Positions 36,034 to 38,988 of a stretch of DNA of 64,000 nucleotides are shown piece by piece. Each line of letters begins with the position of its first letter. Position 1 is the first letter of the stretch. Source of the DNA: an uncultured beta proteobacterium (GTDB taxonomy: Bacteria; Pseudomonadota; Gammaproteobacteria; Burkholderiales; Burkholderiaceae_C); assembly GCA_903876735.1 (NCBI GenBank), contig CAIRAW010000067.1:45161-109160 (forward strand), written 5' to 3'. Position numbers and translations under genes: made by a program. The notes beneath the pieces are model-generated. The model had not been told where the DNA came from. It saw nothing but the letters and a program-made list of their open reading frames with translations, and did no database searches.

Positions 36034-36051
36034 TACTTCATACGATGTATA
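36034..36051 (+). repeat. Left direct repeat (XerC arm plus central region; degenerate XerD arm CCTTACTAATG to 36062)
   Basis: Exact match to 37443-37460. Confidence 0.95.
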
Positions 36052-36069
36052 CCTTACTAATGCTTTGAT

Positions 36070-36354
36070 TTAATTGAAGATTTTTCCGAAGTGGGTAAAA
36101 AAAGGGGCGTTCTTGGAAGTCAGAACAGCCGGTTTTTCAGGGCGCGGGGCGGCATCTGTGGCACGCAGCGTCCACTGGCGCGAAGTGGAAACCGTGGCTG
36201 GCATAGGCTGGGCAGGGCGCAACGGTCCATAGCCTCGATGTGGCAGAGATTGACCGATCGGGTACCCCTCCCGGCGTTTCGCTTCGCTTCCATGGGGTTT
36301 CACCCCATACCCCCGGCGAATGGTGCGAACGACATTTTCAAACCACCAGGTCAT
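36070..36354 (-). CDS. Small hypothetical protein of the IMEX candidate (MTWWFENVVRTIRRGYGVKPHGSEAKRREG...)
   Basis: Start overlaps stop of the upstream ORF by ATGA at 36351-36354. Confidence 0.5.
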   Translation of the reverse strand: MTWWFENVVRTIRRGYGVKPHGSEAKRREGYPIGQSLPHRGYGPLRPAQPMPATVSTSRQWTLRATDAAPRPEKPAVLTSKNAPFFTHFGKIFN

Positions 36355-36545
36355 GATGCGTCACCCCCATGGCTCAGGCCCTCGACCACCTCAGCCGCTG
36401 CGCGGATAGATTCCACCTGCTCGCGAAAGACGTAGACCCAAGGCGGGGCAGTCTCGCCAGCTGCGGCTTCGAGCGATTCCCCGATGGCGTGAGCCATGAG
36501 CAGCCGGTCATTCAGGGCGTTGACGGCCTCGCGCAGGGCGCTCAT
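36351..36545 (-). CDS. Small hypothetical acidic protein (64 aa)
   Basis: Same-strand ORF with ATGA coupling; helical-looking sequence MSALREAVNALNDRLLMAHAIGESLEAAAGE. Confidence 0.55.
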   Translation of the reverse strand: MSALREAVNALNDRLLMAHAIGESLEAAAGETAPPWVYVFREQVESIRAAAEVVEGLSHGGDAS

Positions 36546-37450
36546 AGGGCACCCCTTGGCGTGCTCGCCTGCTTGGCGGCCTTCGCCGCCGCAGGCATTG
36601 CACTCTGGCTACATTGAGCGGGACAGGGCTTGACGCTCACGCTTGTCTTTCTCGTAGATGGCCTGCTTTTCGGCTCGGGTGAGCTTGGCGGGTTGGGCGG
36701 GTTCGGTCGGTTGAGGAATTGTTTTAGATGGCTTTGGCTCAGCCGCTGCTGGCTCTGATCGGGCCGCAGGAGGTTCACCCGGATTGCGCAGGTAGGCGTC
36801 CAAGGCAACGCAAATGAGAGCGTTGATGCTGATGCCGAGATAGTCGGCCTTGGCGCGTGCAGCGGCGTCAAGGGCGTCTGGGAGTCTGAGTGAATAGGCC
36901 ATACTTGCATTATGACGTCATTTTGACGTTGCTTTGACGGGTTATTTTTTGTTGAATCAAGAGTTGTTTTATATGGGACAAGCCCCGCGGCTTCGCCGCT
37001 TTCGGCGCGCTGCGCTTGCCGCTCGAAAGCTGGCGCCGCCGTGACCTCAGCCAATGCGAGGCGCAGCCGGGTGGCTTCGTCGTAGACCGCCCGAAAGCCT
37101 GCCGCCTGCCTGACGAGCAGAGACCACCACGAGCCATCATGTGGCGTGATCTGGCGACCCTCTGGCGTGATCAAGACGTTCCCTTCAAGCCGCCAGCCGG
37201 CCCAAGCCTCGCTGGGCAGTTCCAGACGCGCCAGGACGCGAGCCAGTTTGTAGACGGCATACGGGATGCGGTGCGCGCCGCTTTCCCAGTTATGCCAAGT
37301 GCGATCCGTGACCTGAAAATATTTCCCCGCAGCCTCGACCGACCAGCCAAGCTTGATCCGGGAGTAACGCAGGCGTTCTCCAAGCTGGGCGCGGGTGTCC
37401 GGGTCATGGGGGCATGTTTTCCTGTACTTTGAACTGTGACTGTACTTCAT
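36542..37450 (-). CDS. VC1465/XafT-like Xer recombination activation factor (N-terminal ~130 aa; C-terminal part of ORF doubtful)
   Basis: LGERLRYSRIKLGWSVEAAGKYFQVTDRTWHNWESGAHRIPYAVYKLARVLARLELPSEAWAGWRLEGNVLITPEGRQITPHDGSWWSLLVRQAAGF has the HTH plus WRL.GN.L.TPEGR pattern of this phage/satellite family; the C-terminal half overlaps the RHH gene in another frame. Confidence 0.65.
   Translation of the reverse strand: MKYSHSSKYRKTCPHDPDTRAQLGERLRYSRIKLGWSVEAAGKYFQVTDRTWHNWESGAHRIPYAVYKLARVLARLELPSEAWAGWRLEGNVLITPEGRQITPHDGSWWSLLVRQAAGFRAVYDEATRLRLALAEVTAAPAFERQAQRAESGEAAGLVPYKTTLDSTKNNPSKQRQNDVIMQVWPIHSDSQTPLTPLHAPRPTISASASTLSFALPWTPTCAIRVNLLRPDQSQQRLSQSHLKQFLNRPNPPNPPSSPEPKSRPSTRKTSVSVKPCPAQCSQSAMPAAAKAAKQASTPRGAL
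36609..36902 (-). CDS. Small Arc/RHH-like DNA-binding protein
   Basis: MAYSLRLPDALDAAARAKADYLGISINALICVALDAYLRN resembles a ribbon-helix-helix fold followed by a Pro/Lys-rich tail. Confidence 0.65.
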   Translation of the reverse strand: MAYSLRLPDALDAAARAKADYLGISINALICVALDAYLRNPGEPPAARSEPAAAEPKPSKTIPQPTEPAQPAKLTRAEKQAIYEKDKRERQALSRSM

Positions 37451-37471
37451 ACGATGTATATTATGTTAACC
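37444..37471 (+). other. dif: Candidate chromosomal dif site: ACTTCATACGA TGTATA TTATGTTAACC
   Basis: Central TGTATA and XerD-arm TTATGTTAA identical to the E. coli dif 15-mer TGTATATTATGTTAA; XerC arm divergent (4/11). Confidence 0.8.
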
Positions 37472-37536: not shown

Positions 37537-38988
37537 CTAGACGCCGGTAGCCTTTGCCATCAGTGCACGCCAGCGCTGGTAGCGCTTTTGCAACGCTGAA
37601 TCGGGTTTGGCCGTGAAGACATCCTCATGTGCGCCCTGGTTCCAATCCAAAGGTCGCCCGCATGCCAGATAGGCAATACCGCGCGCGCTCGCTTCCGGGT
37701 CGTCACGCCGATGGACCGGCAAACCACTGATACTGGCAAGGCACTGGCACAGTCCATCCAAGAGCGACACGCCGCCACTGACGCGGATGCGCTTAGCGGC
37801 AGGGATATAGCGGTCCATGTGGTCGATATTGGCCTGCAGCAGGAAGGCAATGCTCTCGACCACGGCCACGGCTTTCAGCCAAGGCTCGCCCTCGCCCACA
37901 AAGCGTGACTGGAACTCGGCTTGCCAGAACGGTCCACCCAAGCCAGCAATGCCGTTGAGAAACAGCGGCGGCTCCTCGTGCCTTGCCAGCCATTGCGCCA
38001 GTGTGTCAGCGAGGTTGCCAAGACCAAACTCCTTGCTGACCCATTCCAGCGCAGTGCCGGCTCCGTTCACATTGCCTTCGACCATATAAAGGCGGCTCGC
38101 ACCGTCGTCCAGGATGATTCCGGTCAACTGGCGCGGCACCTGGCCGGGAAAACTCGTAAGTGCGCGTTGCACGAAGGCACTCGTACCGATGTTGATATAC
38201 GCCGAATCAGCTTCAGGCCAGCCGAACGCGAAAACAGCTGCCGACTGGTCGCCGTTGACTGCGGTCAGTGGAATAGCCGTGCCCAGCAGGTCCAGCGTTC
38301 CCCATGGATAAAAGGTGGGCACACTGCGTGGCAAAAAACCCTCGGGCAGGCCAAAGAGTTCCAGCAGGTCCGGGTCCCAGTCCTGAGTCTGCAGGTTCCA
38401 GAGCTGGGTGCGCGCGGCGCACTGCGGGTCTGCCAAAAACGGCTGCTCAGCGCAGAGGCGAAAAACGACAAAACTGGCCATCGGACCCCAGCACAGGGTT
38501 TTGTTTTCAAGCGCCCCCCGCACGGCAGGCAGATTGTCCAGCGCCCAGCGCAGTTTGCTGGCGCCATAGTGCGGAGAAAGGTAGAGGCCACTCTTGCGGT
38601 GCACGCCATCGGCGTGAGGCTGCAACTGGTCAATCCAGGCGTGGGCACGCCGGTCTTGCCAACTGAAGATCGGAGACAAGGGTTTGCCTGTGACCCGGTC
38701 CCAACAGATCACGCTCGAGCGCTGGCTGGAAAGCCCGGCGGCCACCACGTCCTGACGGCGCGTCCCCAAAGCCTGCAAGGCCTGCGTCACCGCGAAGAGC
38801 ACGGAATTGACGATTTCGTCGCCATCCTGCTCAGCCCAGTCCGCCTGCGGGTATTTGATGCTGATGTTTTCAACGCCGCTGGACAGCGTGCGCCCCTGTC
38901 GGTCAAACACGAGTGCCCGGCTGGCATGCGTTCCCTGGTCAATGGCCAGGACCAGAGGGTTGCTTACGGCACCGATCCTTTCGTCCAT
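37537..38988 (-). CDS. FGGY-family carbohydrate kinase (glycerol kinase-like)
   Basis: LAIDQGTHASRALVFDRQG, INIGTSAFVQ, IRVSGGVSLLDGLCQCLASISGLPV. Confidence 0.9.
   Translation of the reverse strand: MDERIGAVSNPLVLAIDQGTHASRALVFDRQGRTLSSGVENISIKYPQADWAEQDGDEIVNSVLFAVTQALQALGTRRQDVVAAGLSSQRSSVICWDRVTGKPLSPIFSWQDRRAHAWIDQLQPHADGVHRKSGLYLSPHYGASKLRWALDNLPAVRGALENKTLCWGPMASFVVFRLCAEQPFLADPQCAARTQLWNLQTQDWDPDLLELFGLPEGFLPRSVPTFYPWGTLDLLGTAIPLTAVNGDQSAAVFAFGWPEADSAYINIGTSAFVQRALTSFPGQVPRQLTGIILDDGASRLYMVEGNVNGAGTALEWVSKEFGLGNLADTLAQWLARHEEPPLFLNGIAGLGGPFWQAEFQSRFVGEGEPWLKAVAVVESIAFLLQANIDHMDRYIPAAKRIRVSGGVSLLDGLCQCLASISGLPVHRRDDPEASARGIAYLACGRPLDWNQGAHEDVFTAKPDSALQKRYQRWRALMAKATGV

What the first reader, a model, noticed from the sequence alone, without database searches (positions are those of the whole stretch)
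36034..37471. Miniature Xer-exploiting element (IMEX) apparently integrated at the chromosomal dif site
Seen directly: the 18-bp repeat TACTTCATACGATGTATA occurs at 36034-36051 and 37443-37460, 1409 bp apart. The right copy continues into TTATGTTAACC, giving a full 28-bp dif-like site. The left copy continues into CCTTACTAATG, a poor XerD arm. Between them is a minus-strand operon and no integrase or transposase. Established: CTX-phi and TLC-phi type elements integrate at dif with host XerC/XerD and regenerate one functional dif; TLC-phi attP keeps the XerC side and lacks a good XerD site. Inference: this is such an element, but very small (about 1.4 kb) and lacking a recognisable replication gene, so it is a new minimal type, a satellite, or a remnant.
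Basis: partly seen in the sequence, partly recalled or inferred. Interest (0 to 1): 0.93.

Follow-up and report, generated by a model that had tools for sequence, protein, structure and literature searches.

The report
Tiny dif-integrated element carrying a XafT gene
A 1.4-kb DNA element sits in this bacterium's chromosome-dimer-resolution site, brings its own activator of the host Xer recombinases and apparently no replication gene of its own, and belongs to a widespread family of such elements, some of which also assemble as small circles.

Summary
The window lies in a Rhodoferax-like genome (Burkholderiales). Cumulative GC skew peaks at the right repeat, the genome's only complete 28-bp dif. 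The 1409-bp segment lies between that dif and a half-site with intact XerC arm and central hexamer but a degenerate XerD arm, the TLCphi-type layout. The same locus (tatD-ank-dif) is empty in 28 congeneric genomes and filled by related 1.2-1.5-kb elements in at least five others. Across loci I found 64 non-identical dif-bounded XafT units, median 1.44 kb, some in tandem, and eight 1.3-2.0-kb circles (contigs with terminal overlaps) carrying only the predicted excised attP. Two new conserved features: a 17-bp dyad at fixed distance beside the degenerate arm (candidate XafT site) and a hairpin resembling one in a 1.6-kb rolling-circle plasmid (candidate ssDNA origin). Purifying selection on xafT and a nested ribbon-helix-helix gene argues against a dead remnant. 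Most likely: a minimal, Rep-less TLC-type IMEX that depends on a helper. Integration mode is well supported; helper dependence is inferred. New variant of a known kind.

The parts
36034..36062 (+). left half-site (attL): XerC arm ACTTCATACGA and central TGTATA as in dif, degenerate XerD arm CCTTACTAATG (36052-36062)
   Evidence: same layout in related elements
36071..36087 (+). dyad TAATTGAAGATTTTTCC, 8 bp beyond the degenerate XerD arm; candidate XafT-binding accessory site
   Evidence: de novo motif at the same offset within 3 bp in 60 of 67 non-redundant left ends; 13.0 bits against 4.9 shuffled
36034..36315 (+). left-end region, conserved at 70-85% nucleotide identity with elements of other species and genera
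36276..36313 (+). GTTTCGCTTCGCTTCC + hairpin ATGGGGTTTCACCCCAT + ACCCC; candidate replication (ssDNA) origin or packaging signal
   Evidence: perfect hairpin of this type in 34 of 67 left ends, 0 in shuffles; 90% identical over 40 bp to plasmid pM02_c11
36351..36545 (-). 64-aa ORF overlapping the xafT stop; resembles the ORF at the same place in L070 and L077; function unknown
   Evidence: no family match
36609..36902 (-). 97-aa ribbon-helix-helix (Arc/HicB-like) gene nested in the xafT 3' end in another frame
   Evidence: phrog_6506 E=6e-5, HicB E=0.002, below cut-off; dN/dS 0.33
36542..37450 (-). xafT: VC1465-family Xer recombination activation factor, HTH + DUF3653 at residues 22-129; start codon lies inside the XerC arm of the right site
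   Evidence: NF040522 92.5 bits, cut-off 70; PF12375 37.1 bits, PF13560 28.2 bits; dN/dS 0.27-0.32 over residues 1-180 against congeneric relatives
37444..37471 (+). regenerated chromosomal dif, 28 bp
   Evidence: only complete copy in the genome
34511..35985 (+). host left flank tatD + ankyrin-repeat gene, directly next to dif in empty congeneric genomes

Best explanation
It is a minimal TLCphi-type integrative mobile element exploiting Xer (IMEX). Shown from sequence: it occupies dif, carries a XafT-family gene, keeps dif's XerC arm and central region, has a degenerate XerD arm, and leaves a complete dif behind. Inferred, by analogy with TLCphi: in the circle, XafT binds the dyad next to the poor XerD arm, activates and positions XerD without FtsK, XerD then XerC exchange strands with dif, and the same reaction reverses to excise. 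Also inferred: it encodes no Rep and is replicated, perhaps packaged as ssDNA, by a helper's rolling-circle Rep (a filamentous phage, a small plasmid or a Rep-bearing sister element) through the conserved left-end hairpin. The nested ribbon-helix-helix gene may repress the operon.
For: Family hit to XafT over the curated cut-off. Empty tatD-ank-dif locus in 28 congeneric genomes; related elements there in G003 (two in tandem, 1212 and 1229 bp), G028 (1477), G044 (1318), G048 (1499) and G049 (1453), all with a degenerate left arm and intact right dif. The same architecture in other genera. 64 non-identical XafT units, median 1441 bp. Eight contigs with 40-127-bp terminal overlaps bearing one degenerate attP and no full dif; L161 (1534 bp) is 82% identical over its length to an integrated unit. 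XerD above cut-off and a best XerC candidate in the genome. Fixed-offset dyad. Hairpin shared with a Rep_1 plasmid and found just past the Rep gene in a Rep-bearing unit, L174. Purifying selection.
Against: No experiment. Circular contigs can also arise from tandem integrated copies, which exist. No circle was found for this very element. No helper seen in the genome: no Zot and no G2P-type Rep, though it is a draft. XafT binding of the dyad is untested. The XerC candidate (317 bits) falls below the XerC model's cut-off of 335 bits. The right flank of the empty sites was not shown to be orthologous.
Confidence: 0.86

Rival explanations
1. Deletion remnant of a larger phage or IMEX, stranded at dif and decaying.
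For: No Rep or structural genes; a decaying relative exists (G036, left half-site degraded).
Against: xafT N-terminal part and the nested gene are under purifying selection; 64 non-identical units have similar size and layout; circular contigs of that size.
Confidence: 0.08
2. Autonomous replicon: an unrecognised small protein or host factors replicate the circle without a helper.
For: Circular contigs of 1.3-2.0 kb without a recognised Rep; DnaA-box-like TTATCCACATAATC near the left end of several relatives.
Against: No gene other than xafT is shared by all; accessory ORFs differ between elements; this element shows no such box near its left end by eye; Rep-bearing sister units exist.
Confidence: 0.2
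3. Helper is a filamentous phage and the element is packaged like TLCphi or RS1 (sub-case of the best explanation).
For: IMG/VR contigs with Zot-like genes encode XafT proteins; a mini-unit lies next to phage genes in L228.
Against: The element hairpin was not found in L228-L231; no Zot match in the window's genome; no match of the element's DNA in phage records.
Confidence: 0.45

Closest known systems
TLCphi (satellite phage of Vibrio cholerae, with XafT/VC1465)
   Same: attP with dif-like XerC arm and central region but degenerate XerD arm; XafT-family gene; integration at dif restoring a complete dif; tandem copies known in TLCphi and seen in this family
   Different: TLCphi is larger (about 4.7 kb from memory) and has an autonomous replication module (PMC4246890); none was found here. 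Hosts differ (Comamonadaceae and relatives). The fixed dyad was not checked against TLCphi.
CTXphi/RS1 and VGJphi-type IMEXs
   Same: use host XerCD at dif
   Different: different attP type and XerC-first exchange (PMC4246890); the present attP layout differs and a XafT-family gene is present
XacF1/Cf-type inoviruses of Xanthomonas
   Same: attP lies within a regulator ORF that promotes and stabilises integration (PMC5666396); here the xafT start codon lies in the XerC arm
   Different: 7.3-kb complete phage
GGI, EludIMEX-1
   Same: dif-integrated IMEXs; GGI also has a degenerate XerD arm
   Different: 57 kb and 29.1 kb (PMC5357621); GGI uses FtsK
Acinetobacter pdif (Xer) modules
   Same: small segments bounded by Xer sites
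   Different: resistance-gene modules flanked by Xer sites (PMC7399989), on plasmids; whether any has a XafT gene was not tested

Membership tests
TLC-type IMEX | integrated at the host's chromosomal dif | tested here: met
   single full dif, GC-skew maximum, empty and filled loci
TLC-type IMEX | attP with dif XerC arm and central region but degenerate XerD arm | tested here: met
TLC-type IMEX | XafT-family activation factor | tested here: met
   NF040522 92.5 bits, cut-off 70
TLC-type IMEX | excised circle with a single attP | tested here: inconclusive
   met for eight relatives as contigs with terminal overlaps; not seen for this element; tandem arrays could mimic it
TLC-type IMEX | XerD-first, FtsK-independent recombination stimulated by XafT | not testable with these tools
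   needs in vitro or in vivo assay
TLCphi-like satellite phage | autonomous replication module | tested here: not met
   no Rep-like family match among six element ORFs in three libraries
TLCphi-like satellite phage | packaged by a helper filamentous phage | not testable with these tools
   only circumstantial: XafT-bearing inoviruses
inovirus | Zot/morphogenesis genes | tested here: not met
   none in the element; no Zot match in the genome

The most novel reading that the evidence does not exclude
A widespread family of mostly 0.9-2-kb Rep-less satellites, centred on Burkholderiaceae (in the GTDB sense), that live as dif-integrated copies and small circles, with XafT plus a fixed adjacent dyad acting as a self-contained device that recruits XerCD to a one-armed site, and with an ssDNA origin shared with rolling-circle plasmids so that several kinds of helper can move them.
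Probability: 0.45. Interest if true: 0.8.

Novelty: new variant of a known kind. Interest (0 to 1): 0.7.

Why it matters
The IMEXs described in the papers I could read are phages, satellite phages with their own replication module, or islands of tens of kb. These units reduce the strategy to an attachment site, an activator and a putative origin, and are common enough for comparative work. How XafT makes a poor XerD site work becomes testable: the fixed dyad predicts where it binds. They also show that dif, a site needed for chromosome segregation, is repeatedly occupied and regenerated in environmental Burkholderiales.

Tried and rejected
Chance repeat: rejected. Ancestral segment: rejected by empty sites. 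Element DNA in phage records: no match; in plasmid records only the hairpin of pM02_c11. Exact hairpin pattern in IMG/VR: none. A 2022 paper on the Xer activation factor (10.1093/nar/gkac429) is not held, so what I say of XafT biochemistry beyond PMC9765430 and the family name is from memory. G018 Rep hit: lies beside a long ORF resembling a tyrosine integrase, no dif site seen; not a helper of this kind. TLCphi itself was not fetched because its locus adjoins the CTX prophage. Class-wide search: 3 of 387 genomes at E<=1e-15, 2 over the cut-off, both in this family, against 17 of 401 within the family.

Full report
Observation. The 18-bp repeat is exactly where stated, and no further match at up to three mismatches occurs in the window. 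The right copy is a complete 28-bp dif; the left copy has the XerC arm and central hexamer but a degenerate XerD arm. In the 3.91-Mb draft genome the exact 17-mer core is found only at these two places and the 26-bp dif only once. Cumulative GC skew turns over in the same place, as expected for the terminus.

What it is. The 302-aa minus-strand ORF matches NF040522, 'VC1465 family Xer recombination activation factor', at 92.5 bits (cut-off 70), with HTH_31 and DUF3653. Nested in its 3' end in another frame is a 97-aa ribbon-helix-helix gene, followed by a 64-aa ORF. No Rep, integrase, transposase or structural gene was found.

Empty and filled sites. In 28 genomes of the same genus tatD and/or the ankyrin gene are followed directly by a complete dif with no insert (my count of rows with a tatD/ank match and no XafT match). 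By tatD identity the closest of those compared, G007 (89%), is empty (L098). Elements with XafT sit at the same locus in G003 (two in tandem, 1212 and 1229 bp), G028 (1477), G044 (1318), G048 (1499) and G049 (1453); G036 has a decayed left end. G005 (1348), G050 and G053 have XafT beside dif, but the host left flank was not seen.

Wider family. Searches in other genera gave the same layout, and named genomes carrying XafT relatives include Rhodoferax, Polaromonas, Acidovorax, Hydrogenophaga, Xylophilus, Variovorax, Comamonas and Luteimonas (the dif layout of each named record was not checked one by one). Over all loci I counted 64 non-identical XafT-containing units, 875-4058 bp, median 1441; the 4058-bp one contains a transposase gene. 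The family search finds XafT over the cut-off in 17 of 401 family genomes but in only 2 of 387 across the class, both from this family.

Circles. Eight metagenome contigs have identical 40-127-bp ends, and each holds a single attP with a degenerate XerD arm and no full dif; 1600 shuffled contigs gave no such overlap. Unit lengths are 1283-2020 bp. L161 (1534 bp) aligns over its length at 82% with integrated unit L156 (1524 bp). The contig ends lie away from the core, which favours circles, but tandem arrays such as those in L072, L077 and L087 are not excluded.

Attachment-site motif. De novo motif finding in 67 non-redundant left ends gave ccAtgGAAatTTtTTCA starting within 3 bp of the same offset in 60 of 67 (13.0 bits; shuffled 4.9; other windows 5.9-7.7). 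In the window it is 36071-36087. Its partial dyad symmetry and place beside the weak XerD arm make it a candidate XafT site; that is inference. In the circle this block also lies upstream of xafT, whose start codon is in the XerC arm, so integration changes what lies upstream of xafT (read from the sequence; regulatory effect not tested).

Putative origin. The left-end region is conserved at nucleotide level. It contains a perfect hairpin followed by ACCCC, of a type found in 34 of 67 left ends and never in shuffles. Forty base pairs around it are 90% identical to the 1633-bp circular plasmid pM02_c11, which encodes a Rep_1 protein and has the hairpin just past the rep stop. In unit L174, which encodes a relative (72% identity) of the PF23343 Rep of L065, a similar hairpin also lies just past the Rep gene. 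One hairpin type beside two different Rep families suggests a Rep-independent role such as single-strand origin; packaging signal is the alternative. This is inference.

Alive or dead. Against four congeneric relatives dN/dS is 0.27-0.32 for the first 180 codons of xafT, and 0.33-0.34 for the nested gene against the two of them in which it was found; the overlapping xafT C-terminus gives 0.60-0.95. The selected reading there appears to be the nested gene. This argues against a dead remnant.

Helper. The element has no recognised Rep. The genome shows no Zot and no G2P-type Rep, so no resident helper of those kinds was seen; XerD exceeds its model's cut-off and the best XerC candidate falls somewhat below its own. 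IMG/VR contigs with Zot-like genes encode XafT proteins, so filamentous phages share the integration device and are plausible helpers; RCR plasmids or Rep-bearing sister units are the alternatives.

Verdict. The integration mode and membership in the TLC-type IMEX group are well supported; the replication-module feature of TLCphi-like satellite phages was tested and not met. Helper dependence, packaging and the XafT-dyad interaction remain to be tested.

Noticed in passing
36609-36902 within 36542-37450 (-): A ribbon-helix-helix gene is nested in the xafT 3' end in another frame; the same kind of overlap occurs in L070, L076, L077, L080 and L161.
   Followed up: partly
37537-38988 (-): FGGY kinase (glycerol-kinase-like) right of dif had no tblastn match in the compared stretches of related genomes; possibly another lineage-specific insertion.
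   Followed up: no
L174:3959-5635: 1676-bp dif-bounded unit with only XafT and a G2P-type Rep plus the hairpin: a possible autonomous two-gene version.
   Followed up: partly
left ends of L065, L071, L078, L161, L167, L173, L203, L220: DnaA-box-like TT(A/G)TCCACATAATC or close variants roughly 80-110 bp from the attP core; not seen in the window's element.
   Followed up: no
L228, L229, L230, L231: IMG/VR filamentous-phage contigs encode XafT proteins.
   Followed up: partly
L203, L230, L173, L065, L067: Apparently shared accessory ORF with a W-(I/L)-x-x-E-(D/E)-(V/L)-like motif, seen by eye; function unknown.
   Followed up: no
L181:3991-8049: A 4058-bp unit contains a transposase gene, apparently an insertion sequence inside such an element.
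   Followed up: no
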